Shown: positions 896-38,959 of the stretch, one piece after another
Position numbering within the stretch: position 1 is the stretch's first letter
Layout: the number at the start of each line of letters is the position of its first letter
Source: Pseudomonas sp. B21-015
GTDB taxonomy: Bacteria; Pseudomonadota; Gammaproteobacteria; Pseudomonadales; Pseudomonadaceae
DNA: 64,000 nucleotides
Direction: 5' to 3'
Assembly: GCF_024749285.1 (NCBI RefSeq)
Contig: NZ_CP087196.1
Coordinates: 3,348,001 to 3,412,000, forward strand
The notes under the pieces: generated by a model
The model's input: only the letters and a program-made list of their open reading frames with translations
Databases searched by the model: none
What the model was told of the DNA's origin: nothing
Program-made: the position numbers and the translations under genes

Positions 896-1411
896 TTAAA
901 CGACTGGAACACGCCAATCATCGGAGCCCGAAGTACCGGAAACTTCGTGAGTCCAGGTGATTTTGCGATAGGTGAACTGCACTTCTTCCAGGTGGGTGAA
1001 GTGCGCGTTTGACGGATCCTGGCAGTTGTGCATTTTGTTGTTGATGGCGACGATGATCGCGTCTTCCAGTTTGGTGGTGTAGTAGTGCTCTTGGGTACCT
1101 TGAGCCGAAGTGCGGTACCACTGGATAACGATTTCGCTCATGCGCTCGCCAGAGGTCAGCGCCGCTTGCAGCAGTGGCGAAGACTTGTCGTAGACCTTGG
1201 TGATCACGACTGGTTTGTGTACACGCTGGCCGGTCGGTTGGCCGGACTGTGGGTCACGCGGGATGATCACGTCGTGGCTGAAAGCCTGAACCATGACCTG
1301 GTCTTCGTGACCTTCCTGGTAGGTGTTGCCAACGGAGTCGGCGGTGAACGCGCCGGCAGTGATCAGGCCTTGTTTCTCGCCGGTAACGGACATGTACGCT
1401 GGTGTAGCCAT
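896..1411 (-). CDS. hcp: Hcp family type VI secretion tube protein
   Basis: A 171-residue Hcp protein beginning MATPAYMSVTGEKQG. Hcp hexamers stack into the tube that the contractile sheath drives out of the cell, and they chaperone small effectors. The start at 1411 has a GGAG ribosome site about 8 nt upstream. It differs from the second copy (39004-39519) at only four residues: Ser for Thr in FSHD, Ser for Ala in KSSP, Ser for Gly in DPSN and Val for Ala near the end. It lies upstream of vgrG with a hairpin between them. The length is normal for the family. Regulation probably depends on the conserved inverted repeats and sigma54-like site upstream. Confidence 0.95.
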   Translation of the reverse strand: MATPAYMSVTGEKQGLITAGAFTADSVGNTYQEGHEDQVMVQAFSHDVIIPRDPQSGQPTGQRVHKPVVITKVYDKSSPLLQAALTSGERMSEIVIQWYRTSAQGTQEHYYTTKLEDAIIVAINNKMHNCQDPSNAHFTHLEEVQFTYRKITWTHEVSGTSGSDDWRVPVV

Positions 1412-1702: not shown

Positions 1703-1932
1703 TTCCGAAGTGACCTGTCGGCTCTTCTCGCGGATGGCAAAAATACTAACAAAAAATGGTCAATGGCTATCTGATGACGTGGCTGCTTCCGGCAGAAGCT
1801 ACTTCTTGTTGTGACTACAGCCCCATGGGCGACTTAAGGAATTTAACTACAAGCGTCCATGCATGGTTCGTTAATTCTGCAGCCTTAGGTGCCTGGCTAG
1901 ACACCTGAAGGTTTGACTCAGTATCGTCGTGC

Positions 1933-1950
1933 GGTCAGCCAAGACTCGAC
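1933..1950. repeat. 18-bp direct repeat of the mvaU 3' end (upstream copy)
   Basis: The 18 bases GGTCAGCCAAGACTCGAC occur here and again at 2325-2342, where they encode the last residues of the MvaU-like protein. The two copies are 392 bp apart and bracket the small ORF at 2025-2234. A duplicated gene 3' end is a common footprint of site-specific insertion, but no integrase is nearby. Confidence 0.45.
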
Positions 1951-2024
1951 AGTGCCTGTTCGATCTTTACGATTTATCCACATTCTTATACTGCTACGCT
2001 GTCCTTTTCCACGGAGGAATCGCG

Positions 2025-2234
2025 ATGCCAAACTTTGATCTGCTCCCTTCCCTGCTATTCAAGATCAACGAAAATCAGCAAGCCCTTGAGGCTGCCATCA
2101 TGGAACTGACGCTCTGGGTCGAGCAACGTGGATCGGGTGAGATTGGAGGCAACGTGCGCGGTGCGTTGGACACGATCAGATCAAATGAAGAGTTCATCAA
2201 CATGACGCTCGCTGTGCTGATGACGCCGGAGTGA
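2025..2234 (+). CDS. Small conserved protein (69 aa), paralogue of 16288-16509
   Basis: This starts MPNFDLLPSLLFKINENQQA behind a GGAGG ribosome site. I do not recognise the family. It is clearly homologous to the 73-residue ORF at 16288-16509: both share ENQ-x-A-x-EAA-x-MEL, EQRGS and a later N-x-R-x-AL core. The upstream DNA is also related (CTGCTACGCT here, CTGCTATGCT there, then CGGAG), so promoter and gene seem to have duplicated together. The sequence is predicted to be mostly helical. It is convergent with the mvaU-like gene and separated from it by a bidirectional terminator. Function unknown. Confidence 0.7.
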   Translation: MPNFDLLPSLLFKINENQQALEAAIMELTLWVEQRGSGEIGGNVRGALDTIRSNEEFINMTLAVLMTPE

Positions 2235-3097: not shown

Positions 3098-3818
3098 TCA
3101 CACCTCTCTCCTCGCCCACCAGGAGCTCCCATCCAGATGTTGTACGACATGGGTATTTTTTCAAAAAATTGGATCGTTGTTTGAAATCAAACTGGAAAGC
3201 AGCGGCTTACGCCGCGAAGGGGCGATTTTGCTATGCCCATAGGGCGGTCATACGTCAGCGTCAGCAGGATACATCGCAAGAAAAGGCCAGAAGCAGGAGC
3301 ACTGCAAAAGCAAAAATCACATCGTTTTGCCAGAAGGGTCGGTGAAAGGTGGAGCGCCGAGATCCCTGCTTTTTGGTTGCTCTCAAATATAAAGATCCGT
3401 CGCTCAAAAAAATTTTCAAGGGGCCTCCTGAAAAAATATTTCTGTTGACACGATCGGAGCAAAGAAAAATACGTTCCGCTCTACCGCCTAACTCTGTGTA
3501 AACGACAGAACTGCGATAGGCTGGAGCTTGGGCATAACCGGACGCTTCCTCAATCATCCGGCCTGTTACGTGCCCCGAGTTCGTGGCTGCTCAGGTCAAC
3601 CGAACTTCTCTATCACTGATTTGAACAACGTATCCCGGTAGAAAAAACATCCATAGTCTAAGCTTTCGATCACTGGAGTGACTGTGACAGCTAGCGCTGT
3701 AGGGTTCGTTGATGGGCATTTTTTCCGATCAGTAGCGCTGCGTAGTCCATAGTTCTAGAGATGCATTTATCGGATACTGCCATTGCGCCAGCCCCCACCT
3801 TTCAAGGTTGAAATACTC
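3098..3818. other. Intergenic region, no supported gene
   Basis: About 720 bp between the divergent hypothetical gene and the Shango operon. Short open frames exist on both strands but lack convincing ribosome sites or family features. It probably contains the promoter for the downstream operon; I could not pick -35/-10 elements with confidence. Confidence 0.5.
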
Positions 3819-6236
3819 ATGGCAAGGAAGAAGGCAAAAAACTCTACCGGCACCGGCATCCTGATCATTTTTGCACTGGCTTTTGGTGCATTCGCTTCGA
3901 TCCCGAAGAATGCATGGATCGCTATTGGCATCGTCGCTTGCATCGTCGCCATTATGTGGTTGTTAGCCACTCGCACTAAACGACAGCTTGAACAGATTCA
4001 AAGGTCTGCTTCAGCGACAACGCACCTGCGGGAGCCGCGAAGTAAAGACGTGACCTTCTCCATGCATGAGGTTTCGTCGAGCAATATGTCTGAAGAACCC
4101 TCCGAATTTTATACCGTCCAACTCGGCGCCCCCCCTTCCGCCTCCTTTAAAATTCCAGACGCAAGCAAGCAGAAATCCGATACCCGCTGGGTTCCGGCGG
4201 GCGAATCGGTCACTGTGTCTGGTTTTTCACTTCCCAGTGGAATGCTCTATGTAGGAAGCGCACTGGGTCGATACGATGCGCAAGAACCATCACTGATCAA
4301 TCCCAAACTGCGGATAGCCAAATCGTACGTTGATATCGAAGAACGGCTGATGCCCTACTGGCCGAGCTTTCATTCCATTTCGCCAGAGGCTCGGCGCGGA
4401 TACCTGCAGTGGCTAGAAGGCGGACGTCGTGATCCGCTGGCAGACACCGGCTATGTCTTTTTATTTTTTTATGGCCTTGAGCGCCGTGCACTCGTTGATG
4501 CAGTAAGCGATCCGCAGGTGAAGGCGGAGATTCCTCTGATCACCAAAGAAGTCCAGCGACTTCTGAATATCTATGGAGAGAATCGGTCATTCAGGGGGTA
4601 CGCGGAGGGTTTCTTGGATTACCTGAGCAACCACACGGTTAATCCTAGTCAGTACCTTGGCCCACCTCCGGATGTAGTTGCTTACGGCTACGAAATGCCG
4701 CTTCCACTGCGCATAGGGTTAGGGCAACACGCCTCCAACAAACGACCACTTGATGCCGACTGGGCATTGGCATGGGCACTAGCCGACCCCAACATCAGCA
4801 AGCGCACCCCGGTAACTCGGTGTAAGGATGTCTTCGCTGCATTGTTCAAACTCAAGTACGCGAGTACCTACCCTACCGGGCTAATCCTCGCGCAAAACAA
4901 GACCAAGCTTAAAGCAAGCTATCGACCGGCTTCCGCAGTGTTAATGGCACCCGCAGTTAACCTGGGGGATCTTCCTGATGTCATGGCTACTTCAGGAACG
5001 CGTAAAAGCCTGCAATTGATTGTTGAGCTTTGCACCAGCGAGTTGGAGCCCTATAGCCGCTATCTGGGCCGAAACCCTGAAAGCGCAGAAGCGCTGGAGG
5101 GCCTTTTGCAGCTTCCTGTCGCGCTATGGCCGGCGCCGGCCCGTGCAGAATTGGACGATCTTCAACACAGGATCGGTGATGACCTGATCGCCATGAGTTT
5201 TGGCGAACTCGCTGGACGGTTCAAGAGCGCAGGGGCTTTGTCTCGCGACAAAGTACTGGCACTTGCCCGCGCGCTGGAGTCACTCCATATCGGTATGGAA
5301 CCTGACGTTCTGGCAGGCAGTAAAACACCGAAAGCCGAAGACCAAATTGCATTGTTCGTGACCCAACCAGAAGACGGATCACTGCGAGCTTCGGCGGCCT
5401 ATAACGCGGCCTCGGTCACTCTTGACCTAGCCAGTGCAGTGGCATCTGCCGACGGGGATACTTCAAATGAAGAAGTCACAATGCTGGGTCAGCACATTGA
5501 CTCATGGAGTCACCTGAGTGTTGCCCATCGCAAACGTCTCAAGGCGCACTTACGTATCCAAATTCAGCAACCTCCAACACTCGCAAGTTTGAAGAAAAAG
5601 CTCGACCCATTGACCGTCGAAGCAAAGCGCGCGATTGCCAGCTTCCTGGCCCACCTCGCACAAGCCGATGGCACCGTCAGCACATCTGAGGTGAAGCTTC
5701 TGGAGCGAGTGTATAAAGCGTTGCAACTGGACAGTCAGCTGCTCTACAGCGATCTTCACGGTGCTGCATCCGGAGCAAGGATTGCATCCGTCATACCACC
5801 CGCCAACACCACTCAGTCCGAGCCTGGGGTGCCCCTCCCAGTTAACGCCACGCAAGGGTTCGTGCTCGATCACGAGCGAATTGCTGAATTGCAACGAGAA
5901 ACAGCTGAGGTATCCGCCCTACTTGCTCAGGTGTTCACTGATGACCAGGTTGAGGAATCTGAGCAGCTTGTTGAGGATGTCGAATCGACTTCAGTGTCGA
6001 GTGCCGACGTTGCGGGTCTCGACTTAGAACATTCGGCGTTCCTACGCCTATTGGTCTCACGTCCAGAGTGGAGTCGATCTGAACTTGAGTCCGCTGCGAG
6101 CGACATGGAGCTAATGCTCGATGGTGCTTTGGAGCAAATCAACGACATGGCCTTTGACCGCTTCGATATGCCCATCACCGAAGGTGATGATCCCATCGAG
6201 ATCAATAAAGACATTCTGGAAGAGCTAGCCTTATGA
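3819..6236 (+). CDS. sngA: TerB-domain protein of a Shango-type defence operon (SngA-like)
   Basis: An 805-residue protein, counted from ATG at 3819; a TTG 36 bp upstream is less likely. Two membrane helices occupy about residues 10-50 (GILIIFALAFGAFASI and IAIGIVACIVAIMWLL). A long TerB-N-like region follows (YWPSFHSISPEARRGYLQWL is characteristic). A TerB-like helical domain lies near residues 600-640 with ADGTVSTSEVKLLERVYKAL. Known three-gene Shango systems consist of a TerB protein, an ATPase and a DEAD-box helicase and block phage. The gene overlaps the ATPase gene by 4 bp (ATGA), indicating translational coupling. The membrane segments suggest the complex sits at the inner membrane. 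The family call rests on gene order plus motifs. Confidence 0.85.
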   Translation: MARKKAKNSTGTGILIIFALAFGAFASIPKNAWIAIGIVACIVAIMWLLATRTKRQLEQIQRSASATTHLREPRSKDVTFSMHEVSSSNMSEEPSEFYTVQLGAPPSASFKIPDASKQKSDTRWVPAGESVTVSGFSLPSGMLYVGSALGRYDAQEPSLINPKLRIAKSYVDIEERLMPYWPSFHSISPEARRGYLQWLEGGRRDPLADTGYVFLFFYGLERRALVDAVSDPQVKAEIPLITKEVQRLLNIYGENRSFRGYAEGFLDYLSNHTVNPSQYLGPPPDVVAYGYEMPLPLRIGLGQHASNKRPLDADWALAWALADPNISKRTPVTRCKDVFAALFKLKYASTYPTGLILAQNKTKLKASYRPASAVLMAPAVNLGDLPDVMATSGTRKSLQLIVELCTSELEPYSRYLGRNPESAEALEGLLQLPVALWPAPARAELDDLQHRIGDDLIAMSFGELAGRFKSAGALSRDKVLALARALESLHIGMEPDVLAGSKTPKAEDQIALFVTQPEDGSLRASAAYNAASVTLDLASAVASADGDTSNEEVTMLGQHIDSWSHLSVAHRKRLKAHLRIQIQQPPTLASLKKKLDPLTVEAKRAIASFLAHLAQADGTVSTSEVKLLERVYKALQLDSQLLYSDLHGAASGARIASVIPPANTTQSEPGVPLPVNATQGFVLDHERIAELQRETAEVSALLAQVFTDDQVEESEQLVEDVESTSVSSADVAGLDLEHSAFLRLLVSRPEWSRSELESAASDMELMLDGALEQINDMAFDRFDMPITEGDDPIEINKDILEELAL

Positions 6237-7528
6237 CCACTATCAGAGCCAAGGATCGCGACGCGGTCATCCAATCGCTACGCGCCGGCGTCGTTCCTCG
6301 TGTCGGCCAACATTTGATTCAGGTCGGCCGGGTGGGCGAACTCGATGCGCTGATCACCGACGTTAACCGCCTAGTTGAAAGCGGTTCGGCATTTCGCGTC
6401 GTGATTGGTGAGTACGGCGCCGGCAAGACGTTTTTTCTCAACCTGGTACGAGCCATTGCGATGGAGCGCAAACTCGTAACCATGCACGCTGACTTAAACC
6501 CCGATCGCAGGCTGCATGCCACTGGGGGACAGGCACGCTCACTCTATTCCGAGCTGGCCAAGAACATGTCGACACGCACAAAGCCTGACGGTGGGGCTAT
6601 GCAAGGCATCGTCGAGAAATTCATCTCCCAAGCCAAAACAGAAGCCAAGGCAGCGGGTACTGACAGTGAGAGTGTCATCCGTACACACCTTGCTGAATTG
6701 ACCGAGATGGTCAACGGCTACGATTTCGCTGAAGTGATCGCTGCGTATTGCCGAGGTTTCGAGGACGGCAATGAGCAACTCAAGGCTGACGCCATCCGCT
6801 GGCTGCGTGGTGAGTTCACCACCAAGACCGATGCGCGTGCAGCTCTGGGGGTGCGAACGATCATTGATGACGCCTCCGTCTACGATCAGCTCAAGCTGCT
6901 GTCGAGATTCGTAAGACTTGCGGGCTTCGGCGGTCTGATGATCTGCCTTGACGAGTTGGTAAACCTTTACAAGCTGGCAAACACACAAGCTCGAAATGCT
7001 AACTATGAGCAGATCCTGCGTATCCTCAATGATTCGTTGCAAGGATCGTCTGAGGGGCTTGGCTTCGTATTGGGCGGTACTCCCGAGTTCTTGATGGACA
7101 CTCGCCGAGGCCTCTTCAGCTACCCTGCCCTGCAATCGCGACTAGCCGAAAACTCGTTTGCAAAAACAGGGCTGGTGGATCTTTCGGGCCCTGTTATTCG
7201 CCTAACCAGCCTCACCCCTGAAGACTTCTATGTATTGCTTCAGAAGCTTCGTCATGTCTACGCAGGCGGCGATGCTGAAAAATATCTACTGCCTGACGAA
7301 GCACTCCCACTGTTTATGGCGCATTGTAACCAGCGCTTGGGTGAAGCCTACTTCCGTACGCCGCGCACCACTATCACTGCGTTCATCAATCTGCTGGCCA
7401 TCCTGGAGCAAAACCCGGGAGCTAACTGGCGGACGCTGCTGGGAGGTGTCGAGATAGCCAAAGACCTCGGCGGAGAAGAGGACACGAAAGTCGACGCGGA
7501 CGATGAACTTGCCACCTTCTCACTCTGA
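6233..7528 (+). CDS. sngB: BrxD-like ATPase of the Shango-type operon (SngB-like)
   Basis: A 431-residue ATP-binding protein resembling BREX BrxD (DUF2791). The Walker A motif GEYGAGKT lies at residues 59-66, and a Walker B-like MICLDELVNL has the acidic pair at about 240-241. A sensor-like GFVLGGTPEFLMD follows the Walker B segment. It overlaps the upstream TerB gene by 4 bp and the helicase gene by 26 bp, so the three genes form one tightly coupled operon. In BREX and Shango loci this ATPase accompanies an Lhr-like helicase. The gene appears intact; without the helicase (see next entries) the system is probably not functional. Confidence 0.88.
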   Translation: MTTIRAKDRDAVIQSLRAGVVPRVGQHLIQVGRVGELDALITDVNRLVESGSAFRVVIGEYGAGKTFFLNLVRAIAMERKLVTMHADLNPDRRLHATGGQARSLYSELAKNMSTRTKPDGGAMQGIVEKFISQAKTEAKAAGTDSESVIRTHLAELTEMVNGYDFAEVIAAYCRGFEDGNEQLKADAIRWLRGEFTTKTDARAALGVRTIIDDASVYDQLKLLSRFVRLAGFGGLMICLDELVNLYKLANTQARNANYEQILRILNDSLQGSSEGLGFVLGGTPEFLMDTRRGLFSYPALQSRLAENSFAKTGLVDLSGPVIRLTSLTPEDFYVLLQKLRHVYAGGDAEKYLLPDEALPLFMAHCNQRLGEAYFRTPRTTITAFINLLAILEQNPGANWRTLLGGVEIAKDLGGEEDTKVDADDELATFSL

Positions 7529-8141
7529 GTCATCGGGTTTCGGCCAGCTAGAACCCCGTATTCAGCGATGGATTTGGGCTGAAGGCTGGACGTCCTTGCG
7601 TGACGCCCAAGAATGGGCAGTACCTGTTCTAGTGGACGCAGACCAGGATGTCATTATCTCTGCCGCAACAGCGGCGGGGAAAACCGAGGCTGCGTTCCTC
7701 CCCATTCTCACCCATTTACTCAACCACAATGACCCTCCCGGTTCCGTGCTGTACATCAGCCCCCTCAAGGCCTTGATCAATGATCAATGGGGCAGACTCA
7801 GTCGTCTTTGTGAGCAATTGGAAATTCCTGTAGTCGCCTGGCACGGGGACATCTCATCGAGCAAAAAGCACCGATTTCTGAAGTCGTCGGAAGGTGTGTT
7901 ATTGATCACCCCTGAGTCCCTTGAAGCACTGTTCGTCAATCGAGGCTCAAGCCTAGCTGGAGTTTTCCAGAACCTGCGTTACATCGTCATTGATGAGCTA
8001 CATGCCTTCATCGGTAGCGAACGAGGCAAACAACTGCAGTCCTTGTGTAGTGGTCTAATGAAACCGGACACCCATTTAGGCGAGAATGCTCGCCAGATAG
8101 AGGTGTCTGATGACCAAACAACGTCGTTCCTTTTCCGCTGA
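7503..8141 (+). pseudogene. sngC: Lhr/BrxHI-like DEAD-box helicase (SngC-like), 5' fragment cut by IS3
   Basis: The first 181 codons (7503-8045) encode helicase motifs I (AATAAGKT, residues 54-61), Ia (SPLKAL) and II (DELH, residues 164-167). At 8046 an IS3-family element begins, and the frame continues into it to a stop at 8141, giving a 212-residue chimera. The reading frame picks up exactly at 9283. Joining 7503-8045 to 9283-11004 restores an uninterrupted 754-residue protein through QLQSLMHRVE. The gene start overlaps the ATPase gene by 26 bp. The truncated protein lacks motifs III-VI and should be inactive as a helicase. Confidence 0.88.
8043..8045. repeat. 3-bp target-site duplication TTG of the IS (left copy; right copy 9280-9282)
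   Basis: TTG directly precedes the left inverted repeat and directly follows the right one. IS3-family elements usually generate 3-4 bp duplications. Removing one TTG together with the element restores the helicase frame. Confidence 0.8.
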
Positions 8142-8418
8142 ATTCAAACGCGAGGCCGCAGGCCTCGTGCTCGATCAAGGCTATAGCCATATCGAAGCCA
8201 GCCGCTCGCTTGGGGTGGTCGAGTCCGCGTTGCGTCGCTGGGTTAATCAACTCCAGCAGGAGCGCAGCGGCGTGACTCCGCAGAGTAAGGCGCTGACGCC
8301 TGAGCAGCAGAAAATCCAGGAATTGGAAGCTCGAATCGCTCGCCTTGAACGGGAGAAATCCATTTTAAAAAAGGCTACCGCGCTCTTGATGTCGGAAGAG
8401 CACGAGCGCACGCGCTGA
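8110..8418 (+). CDS. IS3-family transposase OrfA
   Basis: A 102-residue OrfA beginning MTKQRRSFSAEFKREAAGLV. It contains the helix-turn-helix (GYSHIEASRSLGVVESALRRW) and a leucine-zipper-like coiled coil (IQELEARIARLEREKSILKKA) that mediates multimerisation. In this family OrfA binds the terminal repeats and is fused to OrfB by -1 frameshifting at an A6G run, which is present near 8367-8373. The gene looks complete. Confidence 0.92.
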   Translation: MTKQRRSFSAEFKREAAGLVLDQGYSHIEASRSLGVVESALRRWVNQLQQERSGVTPQSKALTPEQQKIQELEARIARLEREKSILKKATALLMSEEHERTR

Positions 8419-8422
8419 TTGA

Positions 8423-9271
<849 letters not shown>

Positions 9272-9282
9272 CCACTACATTG

Positions 9283-11004
9283 ATGCATCGAGTCGAACTT
9301 GTCGTAGGGCGTCAACTCCCCCGAGTCGGACTATCCGCGACGCTAGGCGACAAGGAAATGGCATCGGAGTTTCTACGCCCTGGAAGCGCCGACAGAGTGA
9401 CAAAGATTGAGTCTAAAAACTCAAACCAGACACTCCAGGTGCAAGTACGCGGTTACATCCAACCGCCCATGAGCGACCTCAGAAAGATTTCCGTCCAGTC
9501 CTCTGAAGAGGAAGGCGATGAAGACGAAACGGAAAACAAAGCAAGCCCTGACTTTGCGATCGCCGACCATCTCTACAAGGTTCTGCGAGGAAGCAATAAC
9601 CTGATATTCCCGAACAGCCGCCAGCAGGTTGAATGGTACGCAGACCAACTGCGTCGTCGCTGCGAGAAAGACGGTGTCCCCAACGAGTTCTGGCCTCACC
9701 ACGGTAGCCTTTCAAAGGACTTGCGTGAGCAGGCTGAGCACGCGCTTAAAGCGGGTAACCAGGCGGCATCGGCAATCTGCACCACGACGCTTGAACTGGG
9801 AATAGACATCGGGAGCATCAAGACAGTGGTGCAAATTGGCCCCCCTCCCTCGGTGGCGAGTCTACGTCAGCGCTTAGGTCGTTCGGGAAGACGCCCAGGA
9901 GAGAATGCGGTACTGCGAGCGTACTGCAAAGAATCGCCACTCAAAGATGGATCGAGCCTTTCCGACCAACTGCGCCAAGGCCTGGTACAGACCATTGCCA
10001 TGGTTCGCCTGCTGATTCGAGGGTGGTTCGAACCTCCGAGAGCCCAAGGCGTTCACGCCTCCACCCTGGTTCAGCAAATCCTTTCCATCATTGCCCAGTG
10101 TGGAGGCGCATCAGCGGCAGATCTTTGGAAAAGCTTGATCGCCGAAGGGGCTTTTTCCAAAGTCGAAAGATCCGACTTCGTGAGGCTGCTCAGGTCATTG
10201 GGAGAGCATGAACTCATTGTTCAAGACAGTTCGGGATTGTTGCTTCCCGGGACGGTTGGAGAGCGTCTGATAAACCACTACGAGTTCTACAGCGCATTCA
10301 CCAGCGATGAAGAGTTTCGCCTCGTGTGTGATGGGAAAGCCCTGGGGTCAGTGCCAGTAAGCCGCCCGCTTACCAAGGATCAACGAATCATCTTTGGCGG
10401 GCGACGATGGCAAGTGCGTGACGTTGATCTCCAGGCCAAGGTTATTATTGTTACAGCCGCACGCGGCGGTGCTCCTCCCCAGTTCGATGGTTTGGGTGCA
10501 ATGGTGCATGACACCGTCCGTGAAGAAATGCGCGCAGTGCTGGCGGATACTTCGCCCTGCCTGTTTATTGATCGCGGAGCTCAAGAATTGCTCGACGAGG
10601 CACGGAAGACATTTGTCTCATTAGGCCTCGGTGAACACTACATCATCGAGTCGGGCGGTAAGTGTTATCTGATGAGCTGGCTCGGTGATCATGCCAACGA
10701 TGCACTGCGTCTGTTGCTCAATCATGTAGACCTATCTTGCGATAACGCAGGCCTTGCCATTGAGATTGACGCAGACATCAGTCGAACCCAAGCAGCGCTG
10801 GAGGATGTTGGTAGATTGGATGCAGGTGATCTCGATTCGATTCTTGCGAATGTGGAGAACATGCTGCGCGAGAAATGGGATTGGGCATTGCCGGAGTCAT
10901 TGCTGATGAAGTCGTTTGCGTCTATATCGCTGGATATCTCGACTGCTATCGCTTTTGCGCAAAGCCAATCTACGGCTAAGCAGAATGGCGTGGCCACGCC
11001 GTAG
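9283..11004 (+). pseudogene. sngC: Lhr/BrxHI-like helicase (SngC-like), 3' fragment after IS3
   Basis: The remaining 573 codons of the Shango-type helicase. Visible motifs are III (SAT in RVGLSATLGD), IV-like (HHGSLSK), V (TTLELGIDIGS) and VI (SLRQRLGRSGRR), followed by a C-terminal region resembling Lhr-like proteins. An acidic linker (SSEEEGDEDETEN) interrupts the second RecA lobe. The frame stays open a little upstream inside the IS (to 9268), so a start within the IS end is possible. A separate C-terminal fragment would lack the Walker A and DEAD motifs, so no active helicase is expected. Confidence 0.88.
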
Positions 11005-11149
11005 ATGCGTTTCAAACCCGTTTCGCGCTCACACGCGGCCTCTATGTAGGCCCGAGCAGCGTAAGACGTTGGCGCAGGAGATTCGGTAAATACAGAACAT
11101 TCAACACGCCGACAACTTCATTTCTGCTACTGAAGCAAAGCGAAAACGT

Positions 11150-12439
11150 TTAGTGGGCTGGAGGCTCCCAACTCTCAAAATGCTTCAGTGCGTTCAAGTC
11201 TCCGATTAACTCTCTCGCTTTGGTCAGTCGCTCTAGAACAGCTTTACGATCGGCATCCCCCAACCTCTGTGCAGATTGCTCGATGTCATCAAAGAAGGCG
11301 CGGATACTGTTCACCTTCGCCCAAGTCTCAATCACAGACTCAAGCCGATCACGGCTTTCCTGGATCACCTTGAGTCGGCGCTTTTCCTCTTCTTGTCTGC
11401 GCCTCTCCTCACACTCCAATAAAAACTTGTGATGCTCTCGCTCGCTCCGTTCACGCTCGACTTCGACTTTGTTGGCAAGCACCGGAGCCTCAGCAATCAA
11501 CAATTTGATGATGCCAGCAGTTTTGTTGACTAAGTCACCAGGCTTGTCCTCAATCCAACGACGTACCCATTCTGCGCGGTAGTAGGGAGAATAAACCTGC
11601 AGGCAAAGACGGCCAGTAGGCATGTCTTTGCTCATTACCCAACCATCATGAAATGGAGATCGTCGTTGACTCATGGGAAGCGAGCTCAGTCGAACATATT
11701 GCTTACCGACACTTTTCACTGGCACGTATTCACTGACTTCGTAGATGGTCAGCCCGAATTGGACATTTCCAATGTGAACCTCAGTGGGTCGCTGCGGCTT
11801 CCAGAGTGGAGGATGAACGTACCTATTCGACTCCTTTTCTCGGTGATCCACGGATTCACGATTCATGTATGTATCGGCATTTGAGAGCGCTACGGAAAAA
11901 CCTTTTTCCATCAGCGCCAAGTACAGCTGATTGGCAAAGTCCACGGCACGAGTGAGTCCGGTACGGCTCACAATGAGATCGGCCATAGAGCGTTTTGTCG
12001 GTCGCAAATAACCATTTTCGCTTTCCCTCGCCTTCAAGAAATGCTCTTCGATACCCAGCAACAATGGGTGTTTCCGAGGTAGCTTCACATCTATGTTATT
12101 TTTCCGCCGACCCAGCTTCCGGGGTGCTTTCGGTAGGGCCTGTGAAACCTTGAGAGGCGTGCCATTTCGACTCCAGGCAATGAGAGTGCCTGGCAACGCC
12201 GTTGGTAAAGGTGGGCGAGGCTTTCCTTTGCCCGCCGCAACCTGAGCCCAATACCCCACTGGCGGTCGAGGTACATTCAGGCTGGAATAGACCCGAGCCA
12301 GGTAGCTGGAAGAAACACCATATCGTTCCCCGATTTTAGTCATCGGCATCGACCAGGCTTGTTCGTACAGCGACTCTCTTGTCACAACGTCTTCGGAGGA
12401 GTCATCGGCTGGAATGTTTGATTCTGGCGTGTCTTCCAT
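11150..12439 (-). CDS. Uncharacterised 429-aa protein with N-terminal HTH-like region
   Basis: Residues 18-75 contain a helix-turn-helix-like stretch (ESLYEQAWSMPMTKIGERYG, then VSSSYLARVYSSLNVPRPPVGYW). This motif recurs in a family of unknown function that I associate with mobile or defence regions. The C-terminal third (about 330-400) is a highly charged coiled coil rich in Glu, Arg and Lys. There is no enzyme motif or membrane segment. It is convergent with the Shango operon and divergent from the next pair of small genes. A DNA-binding regulatory or structural role is plausible but unproven. Confidence 0.75.
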   Translation of the reverse strand: MEDTPESNIPADDSSEDVVTRESLYEQAWSMPMTKIGERYGVSSSYLARVYSSLNVPRPPVGYWAQVAAGKGKPRPPLPTALPGTLIAWSRNGTPLKVSQALPKAPRKLGRRKNNIDVKLPRKHPLLLGIEEHFLKARESENGYLRPTKRSMADLIVSRTGLTRAVDFANQLYLALMEKGFSVALSNADTYMNRESVDHREKESNRYVHPPLWKPQRPTEVHIGNVQFGLTIYEVSEYVPVKSVGKQYVRLSSLPMSQRRSPFHDGWVMSKDMPTGRLCLQVYSPYYRAEWVRRWIEDKPGDLVNKTAGIIKLLIAEAPVLANKVEVERERSEREHHKFLLECEERRRQEEEKRRLKVIQESRDRLESVIETWAKVNSIRAFFDDIEQSAQRLGDADRKAVLERLTKARELIGDLNALKHFESWEPPAH

Positions 12440-12766: not shown

Positions 12767-13192
12767 ATGTTGGAAGCCGATCTAAAGACCTTATGGCAAC
12801 GCGAGCGAAAACGGCGCGACATACTGTGGACGCTAGAGCGCTTACGCCCTGGTGCTAAAGAAGCAAAACCATTCCTTGCCGAGCTCGAAGATATCGATCA
12901 CCAGGATCTCAAAAACCCAATCGGTGATGCCCATTCGATGTCGATTGATGAGTTGCGCGAACGAGTCCCAGAAACACCATTCCAAGGCAGCGATGGTCAC
13001 CCTTTCGTTATCGTACTCGACCAGCACATCCCACAACCTTGGCATGCACGATTCGAAGCGGCTAGTGCCTTATCTACCCGGCTCCCAGAAGGAAACTACG
13101 CAAGTGATTGGCGGCGATTTTTACGCGTGTGGCTGCGGGAAATGGAGCACCTCAAAGCTCACCGAGAGTGGAGTCAAAATGATCGAGTTTGA
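12767..13192 (+). CDS. Hypothetical protein (141 aa)
   Basis: An unrecognised protein starting MLEADLKTLWQRERKRRD behind AAGGA. It is acidic and helix-rich at the N-terminus, with a tryptophan-rich C-terminal segment (DWRRFLRVWLREMEHL). It has no signal peptide and no known motif. The stop overlaps the start of the next small ORF by 14 bp, so the two are probably a translationally coupled pair. No function can be given. Confidence 0.6.
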   Translation: MLEADLKTLWQRERKRRDILWTLERLRPGAKEAKPFLAELEDIDHQDLKNPIGDAHSMSIDELRERVPETPFQGSDGHPFVIVLDQHIPQPWHARFEAASALSTRLPEGNYASDWRRFLRVWLREMEHLKAHREWSQNDRV

Positions 13193-16509: not shown

Positions 16510-16780
16510 TAAGTTCTAATCTTTTCCAAGCTTCCATCGCCCGAATAGTGCAGTACACCGTACTAGTACAACGCGCTCATTACACCGACCAAAAGCTCTC
16601 CCCCTGACCGCTGAAATCGTAACGCGGCATCATCATGGCCCAGCTAGACTCACAATCCATGCGGATCAGGATGTGAACGCGTGTCGCGAAGCCCTCCCCC
16701 GCAATCTCGCTAGTCGTGTACATAGAAGTCGGGGCGAAATCAGCGATTCAGCGCTGGGTGCACTGGAAAAAGGAGGCTCC

Positions 16781-19435
16781 ATGTCTGTTCTGCAGGAAGT
16801 CTTGTTGTGGACGAAAGGATTGCCGGCTTGGCAAGGAGACTGTGTAAGGCGCCTGTTGGGACAGGAGACTTTGACCCAACAGGATTTCGAGGATGTGCTC
16901 GCCCTGCTCAAATCAGCGCACGGAATCACTGACCCGGAAGGACGCATCCCCTCGCCGCTGAGTGAAGATCAAATCCCTGCTCCAATAAAGCCAACTACAC
17001 ACATTGAACTGCATTCAGTGAAAAATCTTGTTAACGTCAACGCGATCGCACCGGAACACAGCTTGGCATTTTCGCCTCAGGGGTTGACTGTAATCTACGG
17101 GGGCAATGGCTCAGGTAAATCAGGGTACTCCCGAGTACTGAAACGAGCATGCCGAGCACGGGATCAGTCAGAAACCATCTACCCTAATGCTAATCACCCC
17201 CTTCCAGCGGATGCGAATGCTCGGGCCACCTTCAGCATCGGCGTAAATGGTGTCAGCAGCGATGTGCTGTGGACTGACAACCAGCCCGCTCCAGCGGAGC
17301 TTTCAAGCCTTTCAATATTTGATTCTCGTTGCGCGAATGCATACCTCGTCAATGAGGCGGATTACTCCTATGTCCCTCATGGGCTGGATGTTTTTGAACG
17401 ACTCGCCGCGCTGCAGCAACAGTTGAAAACAGCGATTGAACAGGAGCAGAGAGAACACTCCGTAGACCTCTTCGCCTACTCACCGATGCAAGGGCCGACG
17501 GCAGTTGGAAGGATGATCGCTGCCCTTTCTGCCAAGACCAATCCAAACTCTGTTCAAACGCTTGGCACCCTTTCAGATGATGAGCTAACCCAGCACACAA
17601 CCATCGGCAAAAGTCTTCAGGAGAATAATCCCAAAGAAAAAGCCAATCAGCTGAAACGCCTGGCTCAACGAATATCCGTGATTACTGGGAACGCACTGAA
17701 CAAATCGCCACTGATCGACCACAACGTTGAGCAAGCCCTCAAGCAATCAGTTGAGGATTACAAAACAGCAAAATCTGCGGCCGAACTCGCCGCAAATAAA
17801 TTCAAAGAGCAACAAAACCTACTGCCAGGAACTGGTGGTGATGCGTGGCGGGAGCTTTTCGACGCGGCACGCAAATTCGCGCTTGAGTCCCACCCAGGCC
17901 AGGACTTCACATCTCTCGATCCGACCAGTCCATGCCCACTGTGCCAAGAAACGCTCAATGAAGGCGCTGCGCGGCTCGCTCGCTTTGAAGAGTTCATCCA
18001 AGAGGAGGCTGACAAGACATCTCAGGCCCGTCGTAAAGAAATGGTTGGGAAGTACACACCGCTTACGACGCTGGATGTGACGATCGGGCTCGATGAGGCC
18101 ACATGGGGAGAAATCCATACGCTGGCCCCAAAGGTCGCCACGGATTGTCGGGAGTTTGAGCGAGCACTAGGTGAGCGCCGTGACCAGATAGTCGCCGCAG
18201 TAAAATCGAGCAACTGGGCGGATATCCCCCCTCCCCCTCAAAACCCCTCAGCTGACTTGCAGACACTGGCAAACCAACTCAACCAACAAGCTCTCAACCT
18301 TGAACAAGCGTCCGATGAATTGGCAAGAATTCAACTTCAACAAACGTACGCTGAATTGGAAGCGCGCGTGTTGCTGAGCAAGGTAAAAGATGCAGTCATA
18401 AACTCCATCTCCCGGATGACCCATGTGGCGATTTTGGCAAAATGCGTCACTGCGCTTAGGACAAATGCCATCTCAACCAAAGCCACTCAGATTGGAGAGA
18501 CCGTAATCTCCACGTCGCTCCAGGACGCTCTTAATGCTGAGTTCAAAGCGCTAGGTGTAGGAGGCCTTCAGGTAGCCCTCCAGAGTCGTTCAGGGCGAGG
18601 AAAAATGCTGCACAAGCTCAAGCTGGAACTACCACAGAGTCGAAACCCGAAAGACCTACTCAGTGAAGGTGAGCAAAGAGCCATTGCATTAGCATCATTT
18701 CTGGCCGAGGTTGGGCTCAGTGAAAGCACAGGGGGCATCATCTTGGATGACCCGGTTTCCTCCCTGGATCACCGGCGTCGAGAGCGTGTCGCAACCAGGC
18801 TAGTTAAAGAAGCGATGCGTAGGCAGGTAGTCGTTTTCACCCACGATATCTACTTTCTTTGTGTTTTAGCGGAGCAGGCAGATTCGGCTGGTGTCACCGC
18901 ATTGACCCAAAGCATCGCTCAACGTACAGAAGGATATGGTGTCGCAACACCGGAGCTTCCTTTTGAGGGCAAAAATACGACTGGGCGCATCGCATCGTTG
19001 AAAGCTCGGCACCAGCACATTGCAAAGCTATTCAGATTGGGTGAAGAGGACGAGCACCGCAGGCAAACCGTCGAGGCATACTTCCTCCTTCGAATGGCAT
19101 GGGAACGTGCAGTCGAAGAGGTGCTTTTACGACGCGTCGTCCTACGCTTTCGCAAGGGTGTAGAAACTCAACGACTGTCCGAAGTCATCGTTGATGACAA
19201 TGACTACCTGCAGGTAACTGCCGGGATGGGCAAGTGCTCCAATTATGCTCATGACAAGGCAATGGCTGGCGGCGTAGCGGTACCGGATCCAGAGGAACTG
19301 CTGTCTGATATTCAGGCCTTGGACTCCTGGCGTACCCAAATCGAAACTCGCAGCACTGCAACAAGTCGCGCCAGGAAATCGGGTACCCCTTCTCCGCCTA
19401 TTGCGCCTACAGTGGAGGCCAAAATGGAAGGCTAG
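16781..19435 (+). CDS. PrrC/RloC-like AAA ATPase with zinc-hook motif
   Basis: An 884-residue protein from ATG at 16781, chosen for its strong AAAGGAGG ribosome site; the open frame extends upstream without one. Walker A GGNGSGKS is at residues 107-114 and Walker B IILDDPVSSLD near 653-663, followed by VVVFTHDIYFL. This is the AAA_13/SMC-like pattern. The middle is coiled coil with a CPLC motif at 385-388, as in Rad50 and RloC zinc hooks. The C-terminus has Arg771-x3-Glu775 (RMAWE) and His824 (YAHDK), reminiscent of the Arg-Glu-His set of PrrC/RloC anticodon nucleases, though the spacing differs. A phage-defence or RNA-targeting role is inference. Confidence 0.75.
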   Translation: MSVLQEVLLWTKGLPAWQGDCVRRLLGQETLTQQDFEDVLALLKSAHGITDPEGRIPSPLSEDQIPAPIKPTTHIELHSVKNLVNVNAIAPEHSLAFSPQGLTVIYGGNGSGKSGYSRVLKRACRARDQSETIYPNANHPLPADANARATFSIGVNGVSSDVLWTDNQPAPAELSSLSIFDSRCANAYLVNEADYSYVPHGLDVFERLAALQQQLKTAIEQEQREHSVDLFAYSPMQGPTAVGRMIAALSAKTNPNSVQTLGTLSDDELTQHTTIGKSLQENNPKEKANQLKRLAQRISVITGNALNKSPLIDHNVEQALKQSVEDYKTAKSAAELAANKFKEQQNLLPGTGGDAWRELFDAARKFALESHPGQDFTSLDPTSPCPLCQETLNEGAARLARFEEFIQEEADKTSQARRKEMVGKYTPLTTLDVTIGLDEATWGEIHTLAPKVATDCREFERALGERRDQIVAAVKSSNWADIPPPPQNPSADLQTLANQLNQQALNLEQASDELARIQLQQTYAELEARVLLSKVKDAVINSISRMTHVAILAKCVTALRTNAISTKATQIGETVISTSLQDALNAEFKALGVGGLQVALQSRSGRGKMLHKLKLELPQSRNPKDLLSEGEQRAIALASFLAEVGLSESTGGIILDDPVSSLDHRRRERVATRLVKEAMRRQVVVFTHDIYFLCVLAEQADSAGVTALTQSIAQRTEGYGVATPELPFEGKNTTGRIASLKARHQHIAKLFRLGEEDEHRRQTVEAYFLLRMAWERAVEEVLLRRVVLRFRKGVETQRLSEVIVDDNDYLQVTAGMGKCSNYAHDKAMAGGVAVPDPEELLSDIQALDSWRTQIETRSTATSRARKSGTPSPPIAPTVEAKMEG

Positions 19436-22101: not shown

Positions 22102-22623
22102 TTACCGATCTCTAAGATGCCGTTCCTGATCATTATCCCGAGCCACCCCGTCTGCAGGGGCTTCAGTTCGCAAGGAAACTCTCACACCATGATTACGACC
22201 GCCTCCGGAGCCATGGATCACTACCGTTGGTCGCCCATCGGCAGGACGATAAACAGGTTCCACGTGCGCTATTCCCTCTGTATTCGTCGCGATATCCACT
22301 GCTAGGAAATCCGTCTCACCATCGGCTCCAGCTGCAGATTGTTCCATCCTGTTTTTATTGATGAGAGCTTTGGTTTCGTCACGAATCTTATCGGCTAAGG
22401 TATCGAACGCACTTTCCAATTCAGCTCTTTCATCTCCGCTCACGCCTGACTCAAGCTCCTCGCCCAAACGCCTTAGCTCTATCCCGTCAGCGATCATGTC
22501 TCGGATTTTCCCCTTGCCAAAATTCGGTGACAAAACCTTATCAAGCTTGGCATTAATCCGATCAATCTCAGAGTCGCTGATCACTTTGGAAGATCCGTTC
22601 GCAAAACTGATTTTTAAAGCCAT
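22102..22623 (-). CDS. Partner protein (173 aa) of the patatin-like phospholipase
   Basis: MALKISFANGSSKVISDSEI opens a protein with an acidic helical middle (ELRRLGEELESGVSGDERAE) and a glycine-rich, basic C-terminus (VVIHGSGGGRNHGVRVSLRT). Its start overlaps the end of the patatin gene by 10 bp (ATGGCTTTAA holds both start and stop), so the two are translationally coupled. The family is unknown. A regulatory, immunity or sensing role for the lipase is a reasonable guess from coupling alone. Confidence 0.65.
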   Translation of the reverse strand: MALKISFANGSSKVISDSEIDRINAKLDKVLSPNFGKGKIRDMIADGIELRRLGEELESGVSGDERAELESAFDTLADKIRDETKALINKNRMEQSAAGADGETDFLAVDIATNTEGIAHVEPVYRPADGRPTVVIHGSGGGRNHGVRVSLRTEAPADGVARDNDQERHLRDR

Positions 22624-24365
22624 GTGTTAGCCCCTTGGGCATACCGCGCTAAATTCATATTTCCAGTATAGCGCTCAGCGGTGAGGATAATGGAAGTGCA
22701 GAATTCGCTGTACAGCTCCTCAAAATCGGGTGACGCTCGATCGAAAGCCATATTGCAGTCGATGATGAACACGAACGGGCGTGCCCTTCTACCTGGTCGC
22801 GGTTTAAATACGATAGGTAGGCAGAGAATCCACGTCCTATCTGACCACGATGACGAAGAAAGTGTGAAGCGTGGTGGATTACCACTTCTTAAGTCGTCGG
22901 CAATGACTTCCTTTCCGCCCCACGCAGCGCCTGCATGACTATCCTTGAGCAGCACTGTCAACTGTCCATCAGGATCATCCTTGCGATAACCGTAGGTAAA
23001 CGCTGTCGACAGCGTCTTCATGGAGCTACCACGCTGCACCGCAATTGCCACACGTAAACGATTTTTTGCAAGCCCACGAAAAAGTGAGCCCTGGAAAAGC
23101 GAGAACACGGTTTGCAGCTCTCCATACAAACCACGCACAGCCGCTTGCAGGACTGACGGCCCTCGAAGCGCGATGGAGAGCTCTTGCCTAACCCTGTTTC
23201 GGGCATTAGCGACCTCTTCATAAACATCGTTCGCTGGCAGATCAAAATCAAGTAGTGTTGCCCTCGTAGTCAGCGCTACAGTCAGAATTTTGTTAGGCGT
23301 CCGTGTATGGACTTCACTTGATCCATTGACCACCGTACCTGTAAGCGCTGCGAACCAGAACTTGTTGTTTACCGGCGACGGGGGGGACAAGCTCAAGGCA
23401 ATCGTGGGCACTCCTGGGTGCAGCAGCCTTTCCTCATCCAAGGCCCAGGCTGGAAGATTCGATACAAGCCCTCCATCCAAAAATGTCCCCGTCATCGGTA
23501 GGTCATTGAAAGGTGTTTTTCGGGTGAATTTCAGCCTCTTTGGCTTGAAGATGATTGGTAGGCAGATAGAAGCTGCGACGGCATCCGCTACTGCAACATC
23601 AGGTGTCCGCTCAGCGCAGAAAAGCTCAAGACTCTCTGTGGCTGTATTAGTGGCGATGATCTTGAGTGGTGGACACCCGACCCGTTCCATGTCCTCAAAA
23701 GTGATATTGCATTCTTTCTCGATACCTACTTCTCGCAAGCGCTCGCTCAGCTTTCTTGCCAATGTTAAGTCGATGATTTTTCGAATATTTCGTACAGAAG
23801 TGAGCCCCCACAACGCCCAAACCAAACAGGTGATCAGCAACCCCACAACCCAAGGGGCGGCATGAACTACTAGTCGCCACAGACCAGTTGAATAGGCATT
23901 GAAAGCCTCAGGCATTTCCACCGCCACCCAGATTAGAGCACCGAGAGGAAGACCAAAGAGGAAGCACCACCAAAGCATCAAGCCCCACATTTTAGTGAAC
24001 GGGGACAGAATTCTCTTGAGCAATCCAGGGAACGATTTAAACAAATATAGAATCAGCCAACCTTGGAGCGTGAAAAGCTGGGTGGGTTTGCTATAAGGCA
24101 AATCGCCCTTCTTCTTCCCAAAAGGAGGACGAAGGAAAATGTGCTTTTTCTCTGTGGGATCCGCAAGATCTCTTCCCGAGTAACCTGCAGCCACCAGCGC
24201 AGCCGCGATAGATCCAGCCGACGTACCTGCGATACCTTTGATGACAAGTTCTTCTTCTTCGATCGCGATCAGCCCACCGGCGTGAGCAATACCTTTTGCA
24301 CCGCCCCCCTGCATAACCAGAAAGATTTCTTTAACGTCGTGTTGCGTTTCGATTTCATCAGTCAT
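22614..24365 (-). CDS. Patatin-like phospholipase with internal transmembrane segments
   Basis: A 583-residue patatin-type lipase. The oxyanion loop QGGGAKG (19-25), nucleophile GTSAGS (Ser49) and catalytic Asp297 in FLDGGLVSNLP are all present, so the Ser-Asp dyad is intact. Unusually, about 110 residues between the nucleophile and the Asp hold hydrophobic helices at about 127-149 and 163-188, which should anchor it in the inner membrane. Patatin lipases act as membrane-damaging effectors in several anti-phage systems, but no nucleotide cyclase is adjacent here. It is followed by an overlapping partner gene. A toxin-like effector of an uncharacterised two-gene system is the interesting possibility. 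Confidence 0.85.
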   Translation of the reverse strand: MTDEIETQHDVKEIFLVMQGGGAKGIAHAGGLIAIEEEELVIKGIAGTSAGSIAAALVAAGYSGRDLADPTEKKHIFLRPPFGKKKGDLPYSKPTQLFTLQGWLILYLFKSFPGLLKRILSPFTKMWGLMLWWCFLFGLPLGALIWVAVEMPEAFNAYSTGLWRLVVHAAPWVVGLLITCLVWALWGLTSVRNIRKIIDLTLARKLSERLREVGIEKECNITFEDMERVGCPPLKIIATNTATESLELFCAERTPDVAVADAVAASICLPIIFKPKRLKFTRKTPFNDLPMTGTFLDGGLVSNLPAWALDEERLLHPGVPTIALSLSPPSPVNNKFWFAALTGTVVNGSSEVHTRTPNKILTVALTTRATLLDFDLPANDVYEEVANARNRVRQELSIALRGPSVLQAAVRGLYGELQTVFSLFQGSLFRGLAKNRLRVAIAVQRGSSMKTLSTAFTYGYRKDDPDGQLTVLLKDSHAGAAWGGKEVIADDLRSGNPPRFTLSSSSWSDRTWILCLPIVFKPRPGRRARPFVFIIDCNMAFDRASPDFEELYSEFCTSIILTAERYTGNMNLARYAQGANTWL

Positions 24366-30408: not shown

Positions 30409-30840
30409 TTATTTAAAATCAAAATACTCAATCATCATTCTCATTGGCGTCATCATATCCACTTTCAAGAATCCCAGCACCTCAAAAAACCATGAAAGAT
30501 TATCTCCCATTACAGAAACATCATCTTCATCATTTGACAGCAGGCAGATAGCTAGCCGCGCCAGTAATACGTCCTTATCTTGAAAGTCACGTATTGCGCC
30601 TTTCTCATCGATTTTCGCCCACCAAACCGAAGCCTCGGCCTTACAGGCTTCAATTGGGATCTTGCCATTTACATAGTCTTTTGCAAGACGCAAAGGATCA
30701 TTCTCACAATCAGAGAATTTGATACCCAATGCATCCACAACCTTGACCAAAAATCCGATCTGTTGCTTAAGCGCTTCGCGATTGTCAGATGGCCGAATAA
30801 TCGCGCCAACGTTATATTTCTTAAAATCAATTTGATTCAT
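30409..30840 (-). CDS. Probable immunity protein for the Rhs toxin
   Basis: A 143-residue acidic protein (MNQIDFKKYNVGAIIRPSDN) whose start overlaps the rhs stop by 4 bp (ATGA). Small acidic genes coupled directly behind a polymorphic toxin tip are usually its cognate immunity gene. The composition is AT-richer than rhs, as expected for a swapped toxin-immunity cassette. It has no signal peptide, so it would act in the cytoplasm, which fits a nucleic-acid- or nucleotide-modifying toxin. The family itself is not recognised. Confidence 0.75.
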   Translation of the reverse strand: MNQIDFKKYNVGAIIRPSDNREALKQQIGFLVKVVDALGIKFSDCENDPLRLAKDYVNGKIPIEACKAEASVWWAKIDEKGAIRDFQDKDVLLARLAICLLSNDEDDVSVMGDNLSWFFEVLGFLKVDMMTPMRMMIEYFDFK

Positions 30841-38880: not shown

Positions 38881-38959
38881 CCCTTGTTCCTCGCGAAATG
38901 CTGCAACGCGCATTAGTCACGAAGGACTGACGCGAAAAATTCTTTAAAGAAGAAGTGAA

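What the first reader, a model, noticed from the sequence alone, without database searches (positions are those of the whole stretch)
3819..11004. Shango-type anti-phage operon inactivated by an exactly reversible IS3 insertion
TerB protein, BrxD-like ATPase and Lhr-like helicase are coupled by 4- and 26-bp overlaps, the gene set known for Shango. The helicase is split after codon 181, between motifs II and III, by a 1234-bp IS3 element with a TTG duplication. Deleting the IS plus one TTG rejoins 181 + 573 codons in frame with no lost residue. The other two genes look intact. The defence may have been switched off recently, for instance because of cost or self-toxicity.
Basis: partly seen in the sequence, partly recalled or inferred. 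Interest (0 to 1): 0.8.

Follow-up and report, generated by a model that had tools for sequence, protein, structure and literature searches.

The report
Anti-phage operon broken by insertion sequence
A Pseudomonas chromosome carries a known three-gene anti-phage operon (Shango) whose helicase gene is cut in two by an ordinary jumping element; related bacteria show this operon damaged in other ways too.

Summary
sngA (3819-6236), sngB (6233-7528) and a split sngC (7503-8045, 9283-11004) match the PADLOC Shango models strongly. The insert is a 1234-bp IS3-family element (8046-9279) flanked by TTG. Three near-identical copies elsewhere in the genome also have 3-bp duplications. SngC reads through this site in 79 of 80 related loci, so the insertion is derived.

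Three interpretations change. 'Exactly reversible' is no special property: any clean IS insertion has it, IS3 elements move by copy-out/paste-in (passages), and this copy's own second transposase frame is broken. 'Recent' is plausible but undated: no other lesion was seen, and dN/dS lies within (3' part) or slightly above (5' part) that among close relatives. 'Cost or self-toxicity' is untested: 7 of 46 Shango loci (window included) in 398 genomes of the genus are damaged, by varied lesions; one BREX gene gives 1 of 18 (p 0.42). Verdict: an ordinary IS-inactivated member of a known defence system.

The parts
3819..6236 (+). sngA: TerB_N / TerB / TerB_C protein, 805 aa, no break
   Evidence: PADLOC SngA 1.1e-121; Pfam PF13208, PF05099, PF15615 over cut-off; no internal stop
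6233..7528 (+). sngB: BrxC/BrxD-like ATPase, 431 aa, no break, 4-bp overlap with sngA
   Evidence: PADLOC SngB 7.4e-185; Pfam PF10923 1.1e-152; no internal stop
7503..8045 (+). sngC 5' part: residues 1-181, with AATAAGKT and DELH motifs, 26-bp overlap with sngB; the frame runs on 31 codons into the IS to a stop at 8139-8141
   Evidence: PADLOC SngC 3.7e-86, profile 3-174 of 720; motifs at residues 54 and 164; ORF 7503-8141, 212 aa
8043..8045 (.). left copy of the 3-bp target duplication (TTG)
8046..9279 (+). IS3-family insertion sequence, 1234 bp, in the same orientation as sngC
   Evidence: three further copies of 1235 bp in the genome, one base different; NCBIfam transpos_IS3 1.3e-80 for its orfB product
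8110..8418 (+). orfA of the IS (HTH_Tnp_1), 102 aa
   Evidence: Pfam PF01527 4.4e-20
8537..9271 (+). open 3' part of orfB of the IS (rve domain); in this copy the frame that overlaps orfA ends early, in the other copies it is whole
   Evidence: Pfam PF00665 4.5e-31; frames compared with copy L003; the three other copies each differ from the window's copy only by the same one base
9280..9282 (.). right copy of the 3-bp target duplication (TTG)
9283..11004 (+). sngC 3' part: residues 182-754 and stop, with SAT motif and Helicase_C domain
   Evidence: PADLOC SngC 1.2e-200, profile 174-718 of 720 (the query began at 9277); Pfam PF00271 6.9e-15; motifs at residues 199 and 377

Best explanation
This is a chromosomal Shango anti-phage operon (sngA-sngB-sngC) that lost function when one of the strain's IS3-family elements inserted into sngC by ordinary transposition, leaving a 3-bp target duplication. 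The insertion cuts the DEAD domain of the helicase between the DELH and SAT motifs. The cell can then make only a 181-residue fragment with a 31-residue IS-encoded tail, plus, at best, a 573-residue C-terminal fragment. SngA and SngB remain open but lack their helicase partner, so phage defence is most likely abolished. Shown: gene identities, the insertion, its family, its duplication, near-identical copies in the genome, and the uninterrupted site in relatives. Inferred: loss of helicase activity and of phage defence, and a recent date.
For: Shango profiles match all three genes and Pfam domains agree. IS ends, 3-bp duplication and IS3 transposase. Three other copies in the genome differ by one base, and each has its own 3-bp duplication. 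The two parts of SngC are contiguous in 79 of 80 related loci; the other, L070, is broken upstream of this point. SngC stays open for 700 codons or more in 76 of 80. The Pfam DEAD match ends at profile position 140 of 167. No second SngC-grade helicase in the genome: the next best match has 243.8 bits in a 1503-codon frame, like the long frames of about 250 bits common in the genus (taken to be Lhr, recalled).
Against: No expression or phage data. The two fragments could in principle be made separately and associate. The one-base shortening of this IS copy means either some age or a sequencing error, and dN/dS of the 5' part (0.029-0.035) is slightly above that among the three closest relatives (0-0.015), so 'very recent' is not proven.
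Confidence: 0.93

Rival explanations
1. Selected loss: the insertion rose in frequency because Shango was costly or self-toxic in this strain.
For: Shango is damaged in 7 of 46 loci (window included; 6 of 45 without it) of 398 genomes of the genus, by independent lesions in sngA and sngC: IS3, IS1182, nonsense, frameshift, deletion.
Against: BrxC of BREX in the same genomes is damaged in 1 of 18, not significantly different (Fisher p 0.42), though one gene is there set against three. Neutral turnover predicts the same pattern. No toxicity data seen.
Confidence: 0.2
2. Phase-variable switch: the IS enters and leaves sngC, so the population keeps a reversible defence.
For: Clean 3-bp duplication and no other break in the gene.
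Against: IS3-family elements are listed as moving by copy-out/paste-in (passages), so the donor site normally keeps its copy (inference); 3-bp direct repeats give little for precise deletion (recalled); this copy's orfB frame is broken, though whole copies elsewhere in the genome might act on it. In 79 of 80 related loci nothing lies at this position.
Confidence: 0.02
3. Split but working helicase: both fragments are translated (the 5' frame overlaps orfA; orfB's stop overlaps a TTG start at 9268 in the frame of the 3' part) and assemble.
For: Overlapping frames: ORF 7503-8141, orfA from 8110, orfB ending at 9271, ORF 9268-11004.
Against: The cut is inside the DEAD domain. The orfB frame that overlaps orfA ends early in this copy. 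No relative with both SngC parts around an insert was seen among the 80; L039 and L070 are broken but end at contig ends.
Confidence: 0.03

Closest known systems
Shango (Pseudomonas aeruginosa PA14 and E. coli type)
   Same: TerB-domain protein, BrxC/D-like ATPase and DEAD/DEAH helicase in one operon; all three PADLOC Shango models match; the gene set is described in PMC10250203 (passages)
   Different: sngC is interrupted by an IS; the locus lies beside T6SS-type genes (Hcp, VgrG, Rhs), and whether this corresponds to the P. aeruginosa hotspot cDHS1 was not tested
BREX (BrxD, BrxHI)
   Same: SngB and SngC are homologues of BrxD and BrxHI; a published tree puts SngC with BrxHI, DruE and DpdJ (PMC12278908, passages)
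   Different: SngB scores 142 bits against the BrxD cut-off of 350; no BrxC match in this genome at E 1e-60
IS3-family insertion sequences of Pseudomonas plasmids
   Same: the 12 listed of 66 plasmid records match over the whole element at 82.5-86.5% identity; 11 of the 12 are annotated IS3 family transposase
   Different: no listed plasmid copy is closer than 86.5%; three of the 66 records have a best place at 90% or more but are not in the listing, so presumably partial; no ISfinder name could be assigned here

Membership tests
Shango | SngA: TerB-domain protein | tested here: met
   1.1e-121; TerB_N, TerB, TerB_C over cut-off
Shango | SngB: BrxC/D-like ATPase | tested here: met
   7.4e-185, profile 4-439 of 439
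Shango | SngC: DEAD/DEAH helicase | tested here: met
   two parts, 3.7e-86 and 1.2e-200, together profile 3-718 of 720; not one open frame in this strain
Shango | order A-B-C, same strand, overlapping | tested here: met
   A/B overlap of 4 bp in 77 of 79 relatives
Shango | protection against phage | not testable with these tools
   no experiment; predicted lost
BREX | BrxC and a BrxD equivalog | tested here: not met
   G000 has no BrxC match at E 1e-60; BrxD 142 of 350 bits. PglZ and PglX were not tested
IS3 family | orfA/orfB overlap with HTH and rve domains, terminal inverted repeats, short target duplication | tested here: met
   the orfB frame is broken in the window copy and whole in copy L003
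phase-variable switch | IS-free and IS-bearing states in one population | not testable with these tools
   needs reads from the strain

The most novel reading that the evidence does not exclude
Partial Shango operons that keep SngB (and here also SngA) while losing SngC are retained for a residual function, or the split helicase still works as two chains. SngB was uninterrupted in all 43 copies that one search listed, including the four loci whose sngA or sngC is broken (G000, G219, G404, G156 contig 20). Against it: that call listed only matches better than 1e-50, the remnant in G406 does keep a truncated SngB (residues 1-104), and with so few lesions chance explains the pattern equally well.
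Probability: 0.03. Interest if true: 0.45.

Novelty: new member of a known kind. Interest (0 to 1): 0.15.

Why it matters
Searches that score genes one by one still find Shango here, although the system is very probably dead. The genus sample suggests that roughly one Shango locus in seven is damaged (7 of 46), which would matter when phage resistance is predicted from defence-gene counts.

Tried and rejected
A second helicase in the genome that could replace SngC: none at SngC-grade score. Relaxed selection on the split gene: against L009-L011, dN/dS is 0.029-0.035 for the 5' part and 0.11-0.17 for the 3' part; among L009-L011 it is 0-0.015 and 0.10-0.20. The 5' part is thus slightly above, on 4-5 against 0-1 amino-acid changes, too few to tell; dS differs between the genes, which suggests recombination. 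A lesion bias against sngB: no break in the 43 copies, but its threshold hides fragments (G406 has one), and the 80-locus set was itself chosen by SngB. Shango damaged more often than BREX: 7 of 46 against 1 of 18, p 0.42. That yardstick is loose: one gene against three, G073 lacks the first 98 profile positions of BrxC but was counted whole, and whether a contig end cut G090 was not checked. A promoter in or before the operon: 0 sigma-70-like sites in 3500-11300, shuffles 3.8, uninformative. G182 was dropped from the Shango count: its match (412 bits) has only 41% and 27% identity to the window's parts and a 25% neighbour, so it looks like a BrxHI/BrxD pair. Papers: in the listings, most of them capped, no title concerned an IS-interrupted Shango operon; this is not a claim of absence from print. 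The passages read in PMC12458937 do not mention Shango. Millman et al. 2022 was not looked up and not seen.

Full report
What is there. The window lies at 3,348,001-3,412,000 of a 6.59-Mb single-contig genome. The nearest relatives of the operon in the named collection are Pseudomonas fluorescens, P. mandelii and P. citri, and one genome of the host's unnamed genus is the same as the P. mandelii record L010, so the host is very probably a Pseudomonas; its species was not determined. Three overlapping genes on the + strand match the PADLOC Shango models: SngA at 3819-6236 (1.1e-121), SngB at 6233-7528 (7.4e-185), and SngC in two parts, 7503-8045 (3.7e-86) and 9277-11004 (1.2e-200). Pfam agrees: TerB_N, TerB and TerB_C in the first; BrxC_BrxD in the second; DEAD and Helicase_C in the two parts of the third. 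No internal stop occurs in any of the four pieces.

The insertion. Between the two SngC parts lies a 1234-bp element with matching ends and an IS3-family transposase, flanked by TTG on both sides. Three copies of 1235 bp elsewhere in the chromosome differ from it by one base, and each shows its own 3-bp duplication (read from the flanks printed). Partial relatives at 81-83% identity are also present. The element sits in the orientation of sngC. The break falls after residue 181, between DELH (164) and SAT (199), inside the DEAD domain, whose profile match stops at position 140 of 167.

The empty site. In 79 of 80 related loci chosen by SngB similarity, the two parts of SngC are contiguous at this point; the exception, L070, is broken before it. 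SngC stays open for at least 700 codons in 76 of 80. Two more are cut by contig ends (L068, L086). Two are broken elsewhere close to contig ends (L039, L070), in sequence that looks like IS termini by eye; a family search of a short L039 peptide gave nothing. L010 has a SngC of 754 aa, equal to 181 + 573; L009 has 747 aa. DNA identity to L009, L010 and L011 is 93-95% left of the IS and 90-93% right of it. The site is therefore ancestral without the IS.

Is it reversible? Any IS insertion with a target duplication would restore the original sequence if the IS and one duplicate were lost, so this is not a special property. IS3 is named among the families shown to move by copy-out/paste-in (PMC7780238, passages read), in which the donor copy normally stays (inference). 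In addition, the orfB frame that overlaps orfA ends early in this copy, while it is whole in copy L003, and the three other copies show the same single difference. Sequencing error cannot be excluded for that difference.

Is it recent? The four IS copies are nearly identical, and no other break was seen. dN/dS against L009-L011 is 0.029-0.035 for the 5' part and 0.11-0.17 for the 3' part; among L009-L011 it is 0-0.015 and 0.10-0.20. The 3' part shows no relaxation; the 5' part is slightly higher, on 4-5 amino-acid changes. A recent event is likely but not dated.

How common is it? The sample is 398 genomes of the host's genus, one per species, the window's own included. SngB was listed in 43 copies in 42 genomes, none interrupted, at E 1e-50 or better. 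SngC of full length was listed in 41 copies in 40 genomes. Damaged loci: the window (IS3 in sngC); G219 (sngA truncated, sngC frameshifted); G404 (IS1182-family element in sngA); G156 contig 20 (stop in sngA; the same locus as L010); and remnants in G406, G155 and G003. That is 7 damaged of 46 loci (6 of 45 without the window), 39 without a seen break. 'Without a seen break' means an uninterrupted profile match; starts were not checked. The SngC search scored few candidates per genome and its listing was cut near 248 bits, so weaker remnants may be missed. G182 was dropped as BrxHI-like. As a loose yardstick, BrxC is damaged in 1 of the 18 genomes that have it; the difference is not significant (p 0.42). 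In the 80-locus set, sngA is also broken in L010 and L028 (stops) and L031 (IS21-family element upstream of a remnant). The two collections overlap, so these counts must not be added.

What it does. Shango from P. aeruginosa PA14, expressed in PAO1, gave a modest 10-100-fold drop in plating for many phages on solid medium, though not for all phages tested, and generally strong protection in liquid (PMC10250203, passages). No mechanism was found in the passages read. A published tree groups SngC with BrxHI, DruE and DpdJ (PMC12278908, passages). Loss of the helicase most likely abolishes defence; this is inference.

Verdict. The added claims, reversibility as a feature and cost or self-toxicity as a cause, are not supported. 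The finding is an ordinary IS-inactivated member of a known defence system.

Noticed in passing
window 16673-19435 (+): 920-aa AAA protein matching the PADLOC candidate defence model PDC-S06 (7.8e-216), about 5.7 kb downstream of Shango: a possible second defence gene.
   Followed up: partly
window 896-1411 (-), 30837-35555 (-), 35974-38913 (-); L137 12158-18993: Hcp, Rhs and VgrG-type genes and, upstream of the window, further Rhs- and VgrG-like frames (judged by eye) bracket the Shango locus, so it sits among type VI secretion genes.
   Followed up: no
window 11150-12439 (-) and 12767-13192 (+): A 429-aa gene without a Pfam or PADLOC match follows sngC here and in L009 and L010, and by DNA similarity in L017; the 141-aa gene beside it lies in the block shared with L009 and L010. 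Possible Shango companions.
   Followed up: partly
L005 (G000:C1:5018542-5019615 and flanks): A diverged relative of the IS lies beside genes that look like paralogues of window 1929-2234 and of the 429-aa gene at 11150-12439 (judged by eye).
   Followed up: no
G156 contigs C20 and C36: One genome carries two Shango operons, one with a stop in sngA and one without a seen break.
   Followed up: partly
L055, L056, G072: Tandem second copies or parts of sngA (in L055 also a piece of sngB) lie upstream of sngB.
   Followed up: no
plasmid records H13-H17: Five of 669 plasmid records with some match hold one place covering at least 80% of the sngB-sngC query at 67-69% identity; the Aeromonas ones (H14, H15) are annotated with a TerB-domain protein beside them, so Shango-like operons also occur on plasmids.
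   Followed up: no
window 22614-24365 (-): Patatin-like phospholipase (Pfam 2.4e-24) with only a weak match to phospholipase effectors of defence systems (2.5e-8).
   Followed up: no
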